NCBI GenBank assembly: GCA_001789725.1
Contig: MGAM01000014.1
Span: forward strand, 1 to 37,258
Length of the DNA stretch: 37,258 nucleotides
Reading direction: 5' to 3'
DNA from: Candidatus Roizmanbacteria bacterium RIFCSPLOWO2_01_FULL_39_19
Lineage (GTDB): Bacteria > Patescibacteriota > Microgenomatia > UBA1406 > HO2-37-13b
Made by a program: the position numbers and the translations under genes
Notes under the pieces: model-generated
The model's database searches: none
The model's input: only the letters and a program-made list of their open reading frames with translations
What the model was told of the DNA's origin: nothing
Shown: positions 7,209 to 31,735 of the stretch, one piece after another
Layout of the letters: every line of letters starts with the position of its first letter
Position numbering within the stretch: the stretch's first letter is position 1

Positions 7209-7252
7209 TCTTTCATATGGCTCATCTTTAAAATCACAGGGATAGACATGGG

Positions 7253-7327
7253 CGGGACCGACGGGACTCGAACCCGCGACCTTCCGCGTGACAGGCGGAC
7301 GCTCTAACCGGACTGAGCTACGATCCC
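7253..7327 (-). tRNA. tRNA-Asp (GTC)
   Basis: A 75-nt cloverleaf on the minus strand. The acceptor GGGATCG pairs with CGGTCCC, the anticodon arm is TCCGC-CTGTCAC-GCGGA (anticodon GTC), and the T arm is GCGGG-TTCGAGT-CCCGT. The discriminator is G, as expected for tRNA-Asp. No CCA is encoded. Confidence 0.95.
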
Positions 7328-7396
7328 AAGTACCAGTACTATATCAGAAACGTTCACAGTTGTAAATATTTTTCTGGTAAATTAAATGTCCTGTAG

Positions 7397-7402
7397 TATA
7401 AT
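7397..7402 (+). promoter_or_regulatory. -10 box of the kinase-like/NTase-like gene
   Basis: TATAAT at 7397-7402 ends 6 nt before ATG 7409. Confidence 0.55.
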
Positions 7403-7408
7403 CAGACA

Positions 7409-8884
7409 ATGAACAATGAGCGTAGATCTCAAATAGTTCATCCTGATGGTTCAATAACCTCGCTAAGAGCTAACATTGCGTCTGGCCTTGACTATGAAGA
7501 GTTATTGATGCGCCAAGCCAGAGAAAAACTACCGGTTGGATGGGACTGCAACGGAGGGACAATCGTTGGCTACGGAGGAAACTCTGTCGCTTTTAGAGTT
7601 AACGACGGATGTGAGCCTACAATAGTCGTATGGGATCATAATCCCGAAAGACGCAGTCGATCAGTATGGATAAGTTCAAGAACGGACGTTGATGCTGATT
7701 TTAGTGGTTTTACGATTCCTCAACAATTTGCCGTTATAATGGGTGTCAACGGCATACCATCTTGGATTAAGCTTGCGCCTGAAGTTCAAGGCGCAACAAT
7801 GGGAGATTTGTCCTCACTTTATTTATTAGGCGATCGTAAGGCTCTTTTAGATTATCAGCGGTTCTGCAATCAGGTAATAAAAGTTTTCCTCAGTAAAGGA
7901 TATTTGCCTGAAATTCGTGGAACAACCAAAAGAATTATTGCTTTAACCCCATGGTTGTCTCAGAATGTGATGATTTCTTACATTGACTCGTGTTTACAAA
8001 TGGTTGACGCCGAGGTTGCAGACCATGAAATTTGGGGTAATGCCCCGCTGAAAAACAAGCTATTTATCTGTGCTAAACTTACGACTTTATTTTTAAGTAA
8101 GGAATTTGCCAGGATTGCAGCAAAAACGATTGAGGGTAAACTAAAACTTGATACGATTAGAAGAGAAAAAAATTGTCGTCGTAGAGAATATCTGGAAAAT
8201 TTTACTCTTGGATTAAGAGAAATTATTTCATTACTAAATGGTGCTGGATATGATTATAGAATTGGCGGAGGAGTTGCCATTGAAGCCGTTTTAGAAGAAC
8301 GTGGCGTTTTAGAAACTCACTGGCCGTTTAGGGCTAATGGATCAGTCCGAGATGTCGATGTTTCTATTTTTAATGGTGATGTGACCAAACTTGCTGATAT
8401 TGAGCGCTATGTTGTCTCAAGAGGAAAGGTTTTAAGGGGATATCCCGTCCTGTCTCTTCACTATCCCAACTCTGATACTGTAACTCCAAACAGACGAACT
8501 TTTAAATCCAGAATGAGAAGAAAGTACCTTCCGAGTGAAACTACCGGCCTTGCTATTAATGATTGTGGGGTACTTGTTTTTAAGTATGGAGATTTGCAGT
8601 TGACGCTTACCAGAGACGATATGAAGCCTGTTACGCGTTCACTGCTAGGAGTGCAATTTCCATCGCTGCCAAGCGAAACACTTGTTGGGTTCTACCTTAT
8701 TCGAACGGGAGCGTTTAAATTAAAAGATCTTGATAAATTAAAAAGTTTTTTTGAAGCTACGAGAGTTCAGATCCCATCAAGATATCGTGATTTTGCACGG
8801 TTAATTCGCTGCAGATATAGAGAGAAATATAGGAACAATCTTATTAGGCAATGGATAGCCGAATTGTCCTTCGGGAAAATTTAG
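7409..8884 (+). CDS. Kinase-like and nucleotidyltransferase-like fusion protein
   Basis: A 491-aa soluble protein that I cannot place in a named family. Residues 54-64 ('GYGGNSVAFRV') look like a kinase glycine-rich loop. 'EVQGATMGDLS' (about 125-135), 'LPEIRG' (166-171) and 'NVMI' (186-189) follow in the order of a kinase or aminoglycoside-phosphotransferase fold, but the catalytic Asp is not evident. A second domain begins near 262: 'YRIGGGVAIEAVLEE' (283-297) and 'VRDVDVSIF' with the Asp pair 315/317 match the G-G ... D-x-D core of minimal nucleotidyltransferases. The last 100 residues are basic. The gene has its own promoter and no operon partner. Domain calls are by eye. Confidence 0.5.
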   Translation: MNNERRSQIVHPDGSITSLRANIASGLDYEELLMRQAREKLPVGWDCNGGTIVGYGGNSVAFRVNDGCEPTIVVWDHNPERRSRSVWISSRTDVDADFSGFTIPQQFAVIMGVNGIPSWIKLAPEVQGATMGDLSSLYLLGDRKALLDYQRFCNQVIKVFLSKGYLPEIRGTTKRIIALTPWLSQNVMISYIDSCLQMVDAEVADHEIWGNAPLKNKLFICAKLTTLFLSKEFARIAAKTIEGKLKLDTIRREKNCRRREYLENFTLGLREIISLLNGAGYDYRIGGGVAIEAVLEERGVLETHWPFRANGSVRDVDVSIFNGDVTKLADIERYVVSRGKVLRGYPVLSLHYPNSDTVTPNRRTFKSRMRRKYLPSETTGLAINDCGVLVFKYGDLQLTLTRDDMKPVTRSLLGVQFPSLPSETLVGFYLIRTGAFKLKDLDKLKSFFEATRVQIPSRYRDFARLIRCRYREKYRNNLIRQWIAELSFGKI

Positions 8885-27008: not shown

Positions 27009-27037
27009 TGAATAAGTTTTGATTTGTAAGACATTGG
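27009..27037 (+). other. 5' arm of the pre-23S processing stalk
   Basis: TTTGTAAGACATTGG (27023-27037) is a perfect 15-nt complement of 31736-31750, and TGAATAA (27009-27015) complements TTATTCA (31758-31764). Together the arms form the stem that brings the 23S ends together, a normal RNase III substrate. The inner part is helix H1 of the mature rRNA. Confidence 0.85.
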
Positions 27038-27183
27038 AGAATCAAGGCTTATGGTGGATGCCTAGGTAGTTTGAGTCGAGGAAGGACGTGTGTATGGACA
27101 CGATATCGTCGGTGAGTCTCCTAACAGACATTTCAACCGGTGGTTTCCGAATGGGGTAACCCCTCTTGATGTAAATCAAGAGA

Positions 27184-27214
27184 CCCGCTCAGAGCGCTTG
27201 CTCTTTTGAGCGGG
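27184..27214 (+). repeat. 23S hairpin family, copy 1
   Basis: CCCGCTC ... GAGCGGG with an inner AGAGC-GCTT-GCTCT stem, in domain I. Related hairpins lie at 28440-28469 and 28524-28552, where the arms CCCGCT/AGCGGG and the AGAGC core recur. Confidence 0.6.
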
Positions 27215-27339
27215 GGATAACCCGGTGAACTGAAACATCTCAGTAACCGGAGGAAAAGAAAACAATATTTCCGCTTGGCAACAAGCGGGAGAGTGATTCC
27301 GTCAGTAGCGGCGAGCGAACGCGGAGAAGCCTAAACCTA

Positions 27340-27460
27340 CTTGTGCTTTGCACAAGGCGTTACACATATAAACGTACAACGTATCACGTTTTTAAAAACG
27401 TGAAACTTGGAACGTGAAACTTGGAACGTGAAACTTGGAACGTCTCGCGCAGGGCGCGAG
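27340..27460 (+). repeat. Hairpin-bracketed 23S insert, copy 1 (121 nt)
   Basis: It starts with the hairpin CTTGTGC-TTT-GCACAAG (27340-27356), followed by a 87-nt core (27357-27443) and the hairpin CTCGCGC-AGG-GCGCGAG (27444-27460). The core contains the perfect 20-nt palindrome TCACGTTTTTAAAAACGTGA and three tandem 14-nt units (GAAACTTGGAACGT). It lies in domain I, around E. coli 275-290, in a helix that is short in E. coli. The sequence is identical to copy 2. Confidence 0.9.
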
Positions 27461-27647
27461 TGGGGGTTGCGGGAGTCTGCATACCTCTGCTTCTTTTTAA
27501 AAGAACGTTTTGGAAAAAACGGCCATAGATGGTGACAGCCCAGTATTTGAAAAGAAGAAGTAGAGAGCGGAATTTCCCAAGTACCACGGAACACGGTAAC
27601 TCTGTGGGAATCCGGGGCGGTCATGCTCCAAGGCTAAATACTCAAAC

Positions 27648-27689
<42 letters not shown>

Positions 27690-27746
27690 CCCCCGGCGAG
27701 GGGAGTGAAATAGTACCTGAAACCATAAGCTGTCAAACAGACAGAG

Positions 27747-27867
27747 CTTGTGCTTTGCACAAGGCGTTACACATATAAACGTACAACGTATCACGTTTTT
27801 AAAAACGTGAAACTTGGAACGTGAAACTTGGAACGTGAAACTTGGAACGTCTCGCGCAGGGCGCGAG
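27747..27867 (+). repeat. Hairpin-bracketed 23S insert, copy 2 (121 nt)
   Basis: A base-for-base identical second copy of 27340-27460, positioned 407 nt further on. The flanks CAAACAGACAGAG and TGATGTCGTGCC align with the two sides of E. coli helix H25 (CAAGCAGUGGGAG and UGACUGCGUACC), so it replaces the H25 tip. H25 is a classic site of intervening sequences cut out by RNase III in other bacteria. Confidence 0.9.
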
Positions 27868-27924
27868 TGATGTCGTGCCTATTGAAGAATGAGCCAGCGA
27901 GTATTTTGCGTTATGCAAGTCTAA

Positions 27925-27940
27925 CCCCGATAAATCGGGG
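27925..27940 (+). repeat. 23S hairpin CCCCGA/TCGGGG, copy 1
   Basis: CCCCGA-TAAA-TCGGGG followed by GGAGGC. A near-identical hairpin with the same GGAGGC tail recurs at 28034-28052. Confidence 0.5.
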
Positions 27941-28033
27941 GGAGGCGTAGGGAAACCAAGTCTGAATAGGGCGAACAATCAAGCATACGTTTAATGACCC
28001 GAAACTGAGTGAGCTAACCATGGACAGGGTGAA

Positions 28034-28052
28034 CCCCGATGATAAATCGGGG
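28034..28052 (+). repeat. 23S hairpin CCCCGAT/ATCGGGG, copy 2
   Basis: CCCCGAT-GATAA-ATCGGGG followed by GGAGGC, matching the hairpin at 27925-27940. Confidence 0.5.
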
Positions 28053-28439
28053 GGAGGCCCGAACCCGTAGTCGGTGAAATGACTTGGGACGATCTGTGGT
28101 TAGTGGTAATATGCCAATCGAACTCAGAGATAGCTGGTTCTCCCCGAAATATATTTAGGTATAGCCTTCAGTTAAGTCTTTGCGGGGTAGAGCGACTGGA
28201 TAGGCTGTCAAGGCTTTGCCGAGGCAGCCCAACCAAACTCCGAATACGCAAAGTTTTTTTCTGGGGAGTCAGACCGGCTCGGATAAGCGAGTCTGGTCGA
28301 GAGGAAAAGAGTCCGGACTTCCATCTAAGGTCTCTAAATGACTGTTAAGTGGGAAAGGAAGTAGAATCACAAAGACAGACGGGAAGTTGGCTCAGAAGCA
28401 GCCACCTTTTAAAGAACGCGTAACAGCGCACCGTAATAA

Positions 28440-28469
28440 CCCGCTTGAGAGCGTAAGTTTTTGAGCGGG
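28440..28469 (+). repeat. 23S hairpin family, copy 2
   Basis: CCCGCT ... AGCGGG with an inner GAGAGC-GTAA core, just 3' of the L11-binding region. Confidence 0.5.
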
Positions 28470-28523
28470 ATGTGATTTTGCGCCGAAAATGATCGAGGCT
28501 AAAACAGTCTACCGACGATGAAG

Positions 28524-28552
28524 CCCGCTCAGAGCGCAAGCTATTGAGCGGG
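28524..28552 (+). repeat. 23S hairpin family, copy 3
   Basis: CCCGCTC-AGAGC-GCAA-GCTATT-GAGCGGG, at the position of E. coli helix H45, just before the conserved GGTAGGGGAGCGTTC. It shares the CCCGCTCAGAGCGC start with copy 1 (27184). Confidence 0.55.
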
Positions 28553-29143
28553 GGTAGGGGAGCGTTCCTTTTGCAGTGAAGCTACGTCGTAAGGCGGGGT
28601 GGAGCGGAAGGAAGTGAGAATGCTGGCATGAGTAACGATTCTCTTTGTGAAAAACAAAGACGCCGAAAGTCCAAGGTTTCCTGCGCAACGTAAATCGACG
28701 CAGGGTAAGTCGGATCTAAGGGCGCGTCCCGAAGGGGCCGTCTCGATGTATAAGCAGTTAATATTCTGCTACTCACTAAGTGTGCGTTAGACACTTTACT
28801 GATGACGAAGTATGCAAAATCACTGTTCTCTATATGGTAACAGTAGTCGTGCGTGTTTCCAGGAAAAGTCAGTTAATAGGAGTGCATTTAGTATCCGTAC
28901 CGCAAACCGACACAGGTGGACAGGTCGAGTAGACCAAGGCGATCGAGTAAGGATGGTTTAAGGAACTCGGCAAAAAAGCTGGGCGTAAGTTATACGATAT
29001 GCCCTACCCCGCTTAACCGCGGGGTCACAGCAAAAGTTTTCTAACCGACTGTTTAGCAAAAACACAGGTTCCTGCAAATCCGTAAGGAGAAGTATAGGAG
29101 CTGAGGCCTGACCAGTGCCCGTAAGTCAAGAACTGAGGTTGAT

Positions 29144-29250
29144 CTTGTCCTTCGGACAAGGCGTTACACGTATAAACGTACAACGTATCACGTTTTTAAA
29201 AACGTGAAACTTGGAACGTGAAACTTGGAACGTCTCGTCCGGAGGACGAG
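29144..29250 (+). repeat. Hairpin-bracketed 23S insert, copy 3 (107 nt)
   Basis: The same build as copies 1 and 2, but with two instead of three 14-nt units and one core substitution (CACGTATAAA for CACATATAAA). Both bracketing hairpins have changed with pairing kept: CTTGTCC-TTC-GGACAAG (29144-29160) and CTCGTCC-GGA-GGACGAG (29234-29250). It lies in domain IV near the tip of helix H68. The paired changes in both hairpins support folding as RNA. Confidence 0.9.
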
Positions 29251-29817
29251 CTAGGTTTTGGTTCAAGCTCGGGTGAACGTCAGCTCTAACCCTGAGAGTT
29301 CTAAGGTAGCGTAGTCCCTTGCCGGGTAAGTTCCGGCCCGCACGAAAGGTGTAACGAGTTAGAAACTGTCTCGAACCATTGCTCGGTGAAATTGAAATGG
29401 CTGTGAAGATGCGGCCTACCTGCACTTGGACAAGAAGACCCCGGGAGCTTTACTGAAGCTTGATATTGGCAAGGAGCATTTGATTGTTTAGCGTAGGAGG
29501 GACCACGTTCATGCGCGCAAGCGCACTGAACGTGGACCAATGAAACACCTCTCTTCGAATGTTTTGAGTCTTACCCTGCAATAGCGGGGGATAGTGTTAG
29601 GCGGTCAGTTTAACTGGGGCGGTTTTCTCCAAAAGCGTAACGGAGAAGCGCAAAGGTTGGCTTATTCCGTATGGAAATCGGAATTTAATGTGTAAACGCA
29701 AAAGCCAGCTTGACTGTGAGGGTGACATCCCAAGCAGGTTCGAAAGAAGGCGTTAGTGATCCCCCGATGGCCTATGATTGGCCGCGGGGCTTAACGGATA
29801 AAAGCTACCCCGGGGAT

Positions 29818-30702
29818 ACACACCTGTGTCCCGATTCTATGGTAACATAGAATCTAGCATACGGCTAATAACGGTGAAGCCCTCCTACTTTGTGGTTTTG
29901 GTCTTGCCACAGCGAGAGAGTAGAGGGTAATACCGTGGGAAGTTGGAGATATATGACAAAAAAACAAAAAGACGTATTAATTGGAATGATACTTGGAGAT
30001 GCATATTTGCAAAAAACTGGTGAAAAAAATTCAAGATTGAGGCTTGAACACACTACCAATCAAAAAGAATATTTAGAATGGAAAGTGAATTATCTTAAAA
30101 ATTATTTTCAAAATAAAGCTCAAGATATAACTCGCTTCAATCCTGTTTGGAAAAAAACATATAATTATGTGCGGATTCAATCGTATTCCAGTCCGGAATT
30201 TGGGAAATTTCAAAGGCTATTTTATAGTCAGTCAAAAAAAATTATTCCTGACACAATTAGTACACTTTTAAAAAGTCCAATATCAATCGCAGTTTGGTTT
30301 ATGGATGATGGTTATTATTATCATCGCGATAATATGGCTTATATTTATATTCCAAATTATGATAAGCAAAGCTTGCAATACTTGATGGACGCCCTAAGAA
30401 GTAATTTTGATCTTACCGCGGCTCTTAAGAAGAAAAGCAAAGGACTTGTTTTAACTTTTAATGTCAATGAAACAAAAAAATTGATGGAGATAATTAGTGA
30501 ATATGTTATTCCATCAATGAAATATAAAATATCTCTTAACCCCGTATCGACTGAATGAAATCCCGATCAAATCGGGAAAGTAATGAGATAGTCAATATAT
30601 AAATGATTATCATACGCCGTACCCCCGCCTATAGGCGGGGTGAAGATATAGTCAGTGCAACAAGAAATTGTTGATTATGATATAACGTTTGTTATATTCA
30701 TG
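29818..30702 (+). ncRNA. Group I intron at 23S position 2449, with endonuclease gene
   Basis: The 5' exon ends GGGGAT (U2449) and the 3' exon resumes AACAGGC. P1: exon GGGAT pairs with intron GTCCC (29828-29832), with a U-G pair at the splice site; the intron ends in G. The core is AACGGTGAAG (29870) with ATACCGTGGGA (29930), and P7 is GATTAT (30605-30610) with ATAGTC (30648-30653), preceded by the typical GAAGATATAGTC. It is 885 nt long. The endonuclease ORF is looped out between the P6 and P7 regions. Confidence 0.93.
29953..30558 (+). CDS. LAGLIDADG homing endonuclease in the 23S intron
   Basis: A 201-aa protein with two LAGLIDADG-type motifs, 'LIGMILGDA' (9-17) and 'AVWFMDDG' (113-120). 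This makes it a single-chain two-motif enzyme of the LAGLIDADG_2 type. The acidic residue ending each motif (Asp 16 and Asp 118/119) would hold the catalytic metal. It would cut intronless 23S genes near position 2449 so that repair copies the intron in. ATG 29953 follows GGAG with a 4-nt gap; the open frame upstream (from 29890) overlaps the ribozyme core and is not expected to be translated. The A+T-rich ORF contrasts with the rRNA around it. Confidence 0.92.
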   Translation: MTKKQKDVLIGMILGDAYLQKTGEKNSRLRLEHTTNQKEYLEWKVNYLKNYFQNKAQDITRFNPVWKKTYNYVRIQSYSSPEFGKFQRLFYSQSKKIIPDTISTLLKSPISIAVWFMDDGYYYHRDNMAYIYIPNYDKQSLQYLMDALRSNFDLTAALKKKSKGLVLTFNVNETKKLMEIISEYVIPSMKYKISLNPVSTE

Positions 30703-30753
30703 AACAGGCTAGTCTCCCCTGAGAGTTCATATTGACGGGGAGGTTCGGCACCT

Positions 30754-31052
30754 TATGAGTCGAATCAAGGGGTGCCTAGAGTGGTAACACTCTACAAAAA
30801 CAAGTGGCTTATAACGGTGAACTCCATATATAATTATGTATGGACAATACCGTGGGAAGTCTAACTCAAGCTAAAATGTCTTTATATTTAGTCTCTTTTC
30901 ATCAAGGGACGCTTGTGTTATGACCCCGTAGAGACTTTCTATATAACATATAGAAGAATCCAAAGAAACTGGATTAATACGCCAACTCCAATGCTAGAAA
31001 TCATTGGATGAAGATATAGTCCGATCCCATTAGTAATAGTGGTAACCATTTG
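30754..31052 (+). ncRNA. Group I intron at 23S position 2500 (ORF-less)
   Basis: The 5' exon ends GGCACCT (U2500) and the 3' exon is CGATGTCGG; the intron ends in G. P1: exon GGCACCT pairs with intron GGGTGCC (30770-30776), giving six Watson-Crick pairs and the splice-site U-G. The core ACGGTGAAC (30814) and AATACCGTGGGAAG (30846-30859) is nearly identical to that of the 2449 intron; P7 is GGATTA (30971-30976) with TAGTCC (31017-31022). It is 299 nt, with no protein gene inside. Confidence 0.93.
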
Positions 31053-31158
31053 CGATGTCGGCTCATCGCATCCTGGGGCTGTAGTAGGTCCCAAGGGTTG
31101 GTCTGTTCGCCCATTAAAGCGGTACGCGAGCTGGGTTCAGAGCGTCGTGAGACAGCTT

Positions 31159-31465
31159 GTAACGTCCAGAACTGTCTCATCTCTTCGACACTTTAGAACG
31201 TGTTGATTTAGTCTATGTTATTCCATGGTCTTCTTGAAAAACAAAAATAAGAGAATATAAATCTGGCTATATGCTGGGATCTCCTGACAACTGCAGACTA
31301 CTCGCTCCGACATTCCGTCGGGACAGTGAAAATGCCTGTAGGTTTTCCCTACGCGGGGAAAGCAGGACAATCAGCAGGAAAGGCTCCGCTTCGGCGGAGA
31401 ATCCTCACAGACTATACGCCAGACGCCCCGCTAAAGGCAGGGTAAAGATATAGTCGATAAATGTC
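31159..31465 (+). ncRNA. Group I intron near 23S position 2605
   Basis: It interrupts helix H93 just after GTGAGACAG. P1: exon GTGAGACAG (31147-31155) pairs with intron CTGTCTCAT (31172-31180). P7 is GACTAT (31410-31415) with ATAGTC (31450-31455), embedded in the familiar CTCACAGACTATACGCC ... AAAGATATAGTC. Several GC-rich hairpins decorate the middle. Both boundaries are uncertain by about 2 nt, because joining after CTT or after CT both restore H93 pairing. A 60-codon open frame inside (31271-31453) has no support. It is about 307 nt, with a different core sequence from the other two introns. Confidence 0.85.
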
Positions 31466-31735
31466 GGACTCTATCCAGTGCAGGCGTTTGGATTCTTGAA
31501 GGGGCTCTCTTCTAGTACGAGAGGACCGAAGAGAGGGAATCCCTGGTGTACCAGTTGTCCCAAAAGGGCATCGCTGGGTAGCTATATTCCCACGTGATAA
31601 GTACTGAAAGCATCTCAAGTACGAAGCACACCCTAAGATGAGGAATCCCTATAGCTCCCCGCAAGATCAGCGGGTTGATAGGCGCTAGGTGTAAGCCCCG
31701 TAAGGGGTTTAGCCGATGCGTACTAATGAGCGATT

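What the first reader, a model, noticed from the sequence alone, without database searches (positions are those of the whole stretch)
7409..8884. Fusion of a kinase-like and a nucleotidyltransferase-like domain
A glycine-rich loop (54-64), LPEIRG (166-171) and NVMI (186-189) are followed by GGG (286-288) and the D-V-D pair (315, 317). Both halves resemble phosphate-transferring folds, but the kinase half seems to lack the catalytic Asp. NTase-kinase pairings are known from toxin-antitoxin and nucleotide-modification systems, usually as separate genes. It stands alone with its own promoter next to tRNA-Asp, so tRNA or protein modification is possible.
Basis: inference. Interest (0 to 1): 0.6.

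Follow-up and report, generated by a model that had tools for sequence, protein, structure and literature searches.

The report
Pseudokinase fused to ANT-like nucleotidyltransferase
A rare gene in a tiny-genome CPR bacterium joins a degenerate kinase-like half to a half related to the enzymes that attach nucleotides to antibiotics; what it modifies is unknown, but relatives are fused to lipid-headgroup and sugar-transfer enzymes, which points to cell-envelope chemistry rather than to tRNA.

Summary
No Pfam, NCBIfam, PHROGs, PADLOC or PDB match reaches significance, so I built profiles from relatives in other Microgenomatia-type genomes. The two-domain architecture is conserved in two intact relatives (539 and 534 aa) plus a fragment at a contig end. 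Profile-profile comparison places the C-half with ANT(2'')/LinA-like nucleotidyltransferases (PF10706; P 6e-8, 3e-11 with solo relatives) and not with AbiEii/MenT toxins (no match). The N-half matches a small new kinase-like family (P 1.6e-7). All of that family lack the catalytic HxD Asp but keep the loop Asn and the metal-binding Asp; this window's protein also lacks the beta3 Lys. Another genome pairs the same two domain types in reverse order, followed by a GT4 glycosyltransferase. Other NTase relatives are fused to, or neighbours of, CDP-alcohol phosphatidyltransferase and HAD domains. tRNA adjacency is not conserved. AlphaFold models were too poor to prove either fold. Best reading: an ANT-like NTase with a pseudokinase (or atypical NMP-transferase) partner, probably acting on an envelope headgroup or glycan. 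New variant of known kinds; function inferred.

The parts
7409..8884 (+). 491-aa two-domain protein (kinase-like N-half, ANT-like NTase C-half)
   Evidence: full-length relatives
7409..8188 (+). N-half (about aa 1-260): kinase-like domain, pseudokinase by motif
   Evidence: hhalign with L067/L078/L079 family P 1.6e-7 over 197 columns; all lack HxD Asp
7562..7609 (+). glycine-rich (beta1-beta2) loop IVGYGGNSVAFRVNDG, aa 52-67
   Evidence: invariant G54, G56, G57, S59, V60, F62, R63, D66, G67
7634..7636 (+). D76, position of the beta3 Lys; Arg in the closest relatives, Lys in L067/L078/L079
7949..7966 (+). catalytic-loop equivalent PWLSQN (aa 181-186): Pro at the HxD Asp position, Asn186 kept
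8006..8008 (+). D200, equivalent of the DFG (metal-binding) Asp, in MVDAEV
8180..8881 (+). C-half (about aa 258-491): ANT(2'')/LinA-like nucleotidyltransferase domain
   Evidence: hhalign with PF10706 members P 6e-8 to 3e-11; related solo and fused NTases in 18 of 374 genomes
8264..8272 (+). GGG (aa 286-288), NTase G[GS] motif
   Evidence: GS in L006/L007
8351..8359 (+). D315-V-D317, NTase metal-binding DxD
   Evidence: DID in L006/L007; aligned to DxD of PF10706 members
8453..8461 (+). S349-L350-H351, where solo relatives (D) and CDP-alcohol-PT-linked relatives (E, two residues on) have the third carboxylate
   Evidence: alignment A4; L006 has Glu, L007 Ile at 349
7249..7328 (-). tRNA-Asp(gtc), divergent neighbour; adjacency not conserved

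Best explanation
The protein is an ANT(2'')/LinA-like nucleotidyltransferase (C-half) permanently joined to a kinase-like domain without the catalytic Asp (N-half). Most likely the C-half transfers an NMP from an NTP to a hydroxyl or phosphate of a small molecule or lipid/glycan headgroup. The N-half, which keeps the glycine loop, the loop Asn and the metal-binding Asp but has lost the HxD Asp (and, in this copy, the beta3 Lys), binds or positions nucleotide or substrate and regulates the NTase; it does not act as an ordinary kinase. Shown here: conservation of the architecture, the NTase family relationship, the N-half family relationship, and the loss of catalytic residues. Inferred: nucleotide transfer, an envelope (headgroup/glycan) substrate, and the non-kinase role of the N-half.
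For: Two intact full-length relatives and one fragment keep the same order of domains. C-half vs PF10706 members: prob 94.7%, P 6.2e-8 alone; 97.3%, P 2.6e-11 with solo relatives; still 94-96% when the member found through my own profile is left out; reversed controls null. A relative found by the C-half profile, L068, itself passes the PF10706 cut-off. The low-confidence C-half model still ranks ANT(2'') and LnuA structures first (E 0.016-0.064). N-half vs the L067/L078/L079 family: 93.9%, P 1.6e-7; this protein alone P 1.9e-4, its relatives alone 4.7e-4; reversed controls null. L067 (G030) encodes NTase + the same kinase-like domain + GT4 in one frame, an independent pairing in reverse order. 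L018 is followed by an HAD + CDP-alcohol phosphatidyltransferase gene that scores over the Pfam cut-offs; L019/L020 carry CDP-alcohol-PT-like regions in the same frame.
Against: No curated library recognises either half. Both structure predictions failed (mean pLDDT 37 and 38), so neither fold is shown. The N-half alone does not match the APH profile (prob 3.5%); only its sister family does, weakly (38%, P 3e-4). With only the four strongest PF10706 members the C-half match falls to 17% (P 1.4e-3). This copy has Ser/His where other NTases carry the third carboxylate, so even the NTase half may be inactive. The CDP-alcohol-PT link concerns distant relatives, not the kinase-fused subgroup, whose three contexts share no neighbour.
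Confidence: 0.45

Rival explanations
1. Pseudoenzyme: both halves have lost catalysis and the protein works as a nucleotide-sensing or scaffolding protein.
For: HxD Asp and beta3 Lys lost in the N-half; third carboxylate position is Ser/His here and Ile/Ser in L007.
Against: The DxD pair, the GG/GS motif and K439-D440 are kept in all three fusions, and L006 keeps a Glu at the third position. Constraint at the coding level is clear only between L006 and L007.
Confidence: 0.25
2. The N-half is itself an NMP transferase of the SelO or NiRAN type (kinase fold without HRD Asp, DFG Asp and Asn kept), so the protein carries two nucleotide-transferring sites.
For: Same pattern of lost and kept residues as SelO, in which the HRD Asp is missing while the DFG Asp and an Asn hold the metal and AMP is transferred (PMC8097203; PMC12599244). 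Sister proteins L067, L078, L079 keep a beta3-like Lys.
Against: The beta3 position is Asp here and Arg in the closest relatives, whereas SelO keeps Lys. No sequence similarity to SelO was seen in Pfam or PDB searches.
Confidence: 0.12
3. A fused toxin-antitoxin: a MenT/AbiEii-like tRNA nucleotidyltransferase held in check by a TakA/MenA3-like kinase domain.
For: A kinase antitoxin paired with an NTase toxin is known as separate genes (MenA3-MenT3, PMC10435456).
Against: C-half has no profile similarity to 16 AbiEii proteins of the same class (prob 0.1%), although such proteins occur in 51 of 94 genomes there. The kinase half lacks the residue needed to phosphorylate. Solo NTase relatives show no antitoxin-like partner gene in the contexts read.
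Confidence: 0.06
4. tRNA or protein modification linked to the neighbouring tRNA-Asp.
For: tRNA-Asp 80 bases away; a tRNA-Leu overlaps the 3' end of the L006 gene and a tRNA-Pro lies upstream of the solo NTase L017.
Against: Different tRNAs, sides and orientations; none near the L007 gene. With dozens of tRNA genes per small genome, adjacency is expected now and then.
Confidence: 0.05
5. A drug-modifying (aminoglycoside or lincosamide) resistance enzyme with an APH-like partner domain.
For: The C-half is closest to PF10706, which contains ANT(2'').
Against: Very distant, rare and patchy, no mobile-element or resistance context, absent from 72,556 plasmids, and the APH-like half lacks the catalytic Asp.
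Confidence: 0.04

Closest known systems
ANT(2'')/Aminoglyc_resit nucleotidyltransferases (PF10706) and LinA/LnuA
   Same: Profile-profile match across the NTase core; GG motif and DxD; top structural neighbours of a weak model.
   Different: No direct Pfam hit; longer C-terminal region; fused kinase-like domain; third carboxylate absent in this copy.
Aminoglycoside phosphotransferase/protein-kinase-like fold (PF01636, CL0016)
   Same: Glycine loop, hinge-like segment, loop Asn and DFG-like Asp in the right order; sister family aligns weakly with APH over the N-lobe.
   Different: No catalytic Asp, no beta3 Lys, no significant direct match to APH.
SelO pseudokinase AMPylases
   Same: HRD Asp missing while Asn and DFG Asp are kept.
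   Different: SelO keeps the beta3 Lys and is not fused to an NTase; no detectable sequence similarity.
MenA3(TakA)-MenT3(TglT) type VII toxin-antitoxin
   Same: Kinase and nucleotidyltransferase working as a pair.
   Different: Separate genes, DUF1814-type NTase, active kinase; C-half here shows no AbiEii/MenT similarity.
CDP-alcohol phosphatidyltransferase (PF01066) with HAD
   Same: Relatives of the C-half are fused to or next to these domains.
   Different: Neither domain is present in or near the window's gene.

Membership tests
ANT(2'')-like NTase (PF10706) | Score above the curated Pfam cut-off | tested here: not met
   no PF10706 hit for the window protein
ANT(2'')-like NTase (PF10706) | Profile-profile similarity over the NTase core | tested here: met
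   prob 94.7-97.5%, P 6e-8 to 8e-12; null for reversed profiles
ANT(2'')-like NTase (PF10706) | G[GS] motif and DxD metal ligands | tested here: met
   G287-G288, D315, D317; conserved in L006 and L007
ANT(2'')-like NTase (PF10706) | Third carboxylate | tested here: not met
   S349/H351 here; D in L003/L017, E in L018-L020, E in L006, I in L007
ANT(2'')-like NTase (PF10706) | Pol-beta NTase fold | tested here: inconclusive
   model pLDDT 38; Foldseek top hits ANT(2'')/LnuA at E 0.016-0.064 with TM about 0.2-0.3
AbiEii/MenT toxins (PF08843) | Profile similarity | tested here: not met
   prob 0.1-0.4%
Type VII kinase/NTase toxin-antitoxin | Separate kinase antitoxin gene beside an NTase toxin gene | tested here: not met
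   single ORF; neighbours are tRNA-Asp and DNA polymerase X
Protein kinase-like superfamily | Glycine-rich loop | tested here: met
   aa 54-64, invariant glycines
Protein kinase-like superfamily | beta3 Lys | tested here: not met
   D76 here, R in L006/L007/L002, K in L067/L078/L079
Protein kinase-like superfamily | HxD catalytic Asp | tested here: not met
   Pro181 here, Phe in L006/L007, Pro in the sister family
Protein kinase-like superfamily | Catalytic-loop Asn and DFG Asp | tested here: met
   N186 and D200
Protein kinase-like superfamily | Profile similarity to a known kinase family | tested here: inconclusive
   N-half vs APH 3.5%; sister family vs APH 38%, P 3e-4; B-Raf N-lobe E about 0.1 in PDB profile search
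Protein kinase-like superfamily | Two-lobed kinase fold | tested here: inconclusive
   model pLDDT 37, Foldseek uninformative
SelO AMPylase | NMP transfer by a kinase-like fold | not testable with these tools
   needs an alpha-32P-NTP assay
Fused kinase-like/NTase family of the window protein | Architecture conserved in other species | tested here: met
   L006 (539 aa), L007 (534 aa), fragment L002/L009

The most novel reading that the evidence does not exclude
The N-half founds a new family of kinase-fold proteins without catalytic Asp that transfer NMP (as SelO and NiRAN do), here joined to an ANT-like NTase, so that one polypeptide carries two unrelated nucleotide-transferring sites serving a CPR-specific envelope modification.
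Probability: 0.08. Interest if true: 0.75.

Novelty: new variant of a known kind. Interest (0 to 1): 0.42.

Why it matters
CPR bacteria encode many proteins that no library recognises. This one can be placed by profile chaining. It shows a repeated pairing, in both orders, of an ANT-like nucleotidyltransferase with a kinase-like domain that has lost its catalytic Asp, and it links that NTase family to CDP-alcohol phosphatidyltransferases and a glycosyltransferase. If active, it would add a headgroup- or glycan-nucleotidylating step to CPR envelope biology and another case of a pseudokinase put to new use.

Tried and rejected
Curated libraries (Pfam, NCBIfam, PHROGs, PADLOC) and PDB phmmer with the single sequence: nothing. 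Phages and plasmids by tblastn: no match. IMG/VR scans with several queries: no relative. Foldseek on the full-length model: noise. The G041:C22 hit (L008) was rejected: it lies in a LysM/transglycosylase-like reading frame. AbiEii/MenT membership was rejected. The DPBB_1 hit (E 0.15) and the single-sequence PDB hits were treated as chance. The tRNA-adjacency idea was rejected as not conserved. A literature search for this architecture found nothing relevant.

Full report
Observation. The window is contig 14 of a 658-kb, 22-contig genome bin; its order-mates include a Candidatus Roizmanbacteria assembly (L009, a contig of the same 6,209-base length and content as G075:C98), so it is a CPR bacterium of the Microgenomates type. 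The ORF 7409-8884 (+) encodes 491 aa. GC content (0.40) and third-position GC (0.32) are those of its neighbours, so there is no sign of recent import. tRNA-Asp lies at 7249-7328 on the other strand. The consensus scan lists no + strand promoter directly before the gene, only a TATAAT stands at 7397-7402, and it finds no terminator behind it; the PolX/PHP gene follows on the same strand. 'Own promoter' and 'stands alone' are therefore not shown.

Relatives. Curated libraries and PDB sequences give nothing, nor do phage records, plasmids or viral contigs. Whole-genome searches found an N-half fragment at a contig end (L002 = L009), two full-length relatives of 539 and 534 aa (L006 in G335, L007 in G192), and solo relatives of the C-half (L003, L004, L017). 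The full-length relatives share 27% identity with the window protein over 472 aligned residues and 65% with each other. Between those two, differences at codon positions 1/2/3 are 0.27/0.17/0.54, a coding sequence under constraint. Three of 374 genomes sampled from the class carry the two-domain form (leaving out the spurious G041 hit); the NTase-like domain occurs in 18 of 374.

C-half. An alignment of nine relatives (A4) searched through the class added further members, among them L068, which itself scores above the Pfam cut-off for PF10706, the ANT(2'')-like family. Fifteen proteins (fourteen PF10706 hits of the same class, plus L068) were aligned and compared by hhalign. The three kinase-fused proteins alone give 94.7% (P 6e-8), the solo relatives 97.5% (P 8e-12) and both together 97.3% (P 3e-11). 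Without L068 the values are 94-96%; with only the six strongest members 72-87%; with only four 17-22%, so the assignment rests on the breadth of the family. Reversed profiles give 0.1%. Sixteen AbiEii/MenT-type proteins give 0.1%. A single-sequence model of the C-half is poor (pLDDT 38), yet its best Foldseek hits are ANT(2'') and LnuA; this is weak but independent support. The DxD pair (D315, D317) and the GG motif are kept. The third carboxylate is Ser349/His351 here, Glu in L006, Ile in L007, and Asp or Glu in the solo and PT-linked relatives.

N-half. No direct match to 21 APH proteins of related genomes (3.5%). The link came from L067 (G030), an 885-aa frame with NTase, a kinase-like region and a GT4 glycosyltransferase region. 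Its middle region has two solo relatives, L078 and L079. The profile of these three matches the N-half at 93.9% (P 1.6e-7, 197 columns from before the glycine loop to the DFG-like Asp). The window protein alone (P 1.9e-4) and its relatives alone (P 4.7e-4) each match in the same register, and reversed controls are null. The sister family keeps a Lys at a beta3-like position and aligns with APH over the N-lobe and hinge (38%, P 3e-4). A profile of both groups ranks B-Raf kinase domains near the top of the PDB at sub-threshold E of about 0.1. The order of motifs (glycine loop, hinge, Asn, Asp) is that of a kinase. In every complete member the HxD Asp is Pro or Phe, while Asn186 and Asp200 (window numbering) are kept; the beta3 position is Asp here and Arg in the nearest relatives. 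I regard the kinase fold as likely (about 0.7) but not shown.

Context. The NTase family is linked to CDP-alcohol phosphatidyltransferase plus HAD domains. In L018 the neighbouring gene passes the Pfam cut-offs for S6PP (a HAD family) and CDP-OH_P_transf. L019 and L020 carry the CDP-alcohol motif region in the same frame by reading of the sequence, with sub-threshold Pfam and NCBIfam support. The GT4 region of L067 is also sub-threshold (E 0.002) but long and typical. The three complete kinase-fused genes share no neighbour: tRNA-Asp and PolX here; tRNA-Leu and trigger factor in L006/L011; a DUF433 gene and an aspartyl-protease-like gene in L007/L010.

Mechanism. The most economical reading is an ANT-like NTase whose activity or substrate capture depends on a built-in pseudokinase domain, acting on an envelope headgroup or glycan. 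The envelope part is guilt by association from distant relatives. The retained Asn/Asp without the HxD Asp recalls SelO, in which the DFG Asp and an Asn serve AMP transfer (PMC8097203; PMC12599244), so a second NMP-transferase site cannot be excluded. Because the third carboxylate is missing here, a pseudoenzyme is the main rival. The type VII toxin-antitoxin analogy (MenA3/MenT3, PMC10435456) is disfavoured by the AbiEii result, and tRNA modification by the lack of conserved adjacency.

Verdict. Observation confirmed, interpretation partly supported, new variant of known kinds, function inferred and testable.

Noticed in passing
window 27031-31477: A 23S rRNA match (27031-29862) is followed by a LAGLIDADG_2 endonuclease ORF (29890-30558) and two group I introns (30743-31043, 31205-31477): an intron-laden rRNA region.
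   Followed up: partly
L006 519-604 and 583-2202: A tRNA-Leu gene overlaps the last about 20 bases of the full-length relative's reading frame on the opposite strand.
   Followed up: no
L067 1168-3381 / L073 5829-8483 (G030): 885-aa frame with NTase-like, kinase-like (no HxD Asp) and GT4 glycosyltransferase regions: a second, reverse-order pairing of the two domain types.
   Followed up: partly
L019, L020, L060; L018 with neighbour gene: Unrecognised ANT-like NTase domains joined to or beside CDP-alcohol phosphatidyltransferase-like and HAD regions, a possible headgroup-making system of CPR bacteria.
   Followed up: partly
L078 1411-2142, L079 1441-2118: Solo members of the kinase-like family without HxD Asp, with no Pfam or NCBIfam match above cut-off.
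   Followed up: partly
G000:C20 4808-5362: The window's own genome holds a separate AbiEii-like NTase gene; the AbiEii family shows no profile similarity to the fusion's C-half.
   Followed up: no
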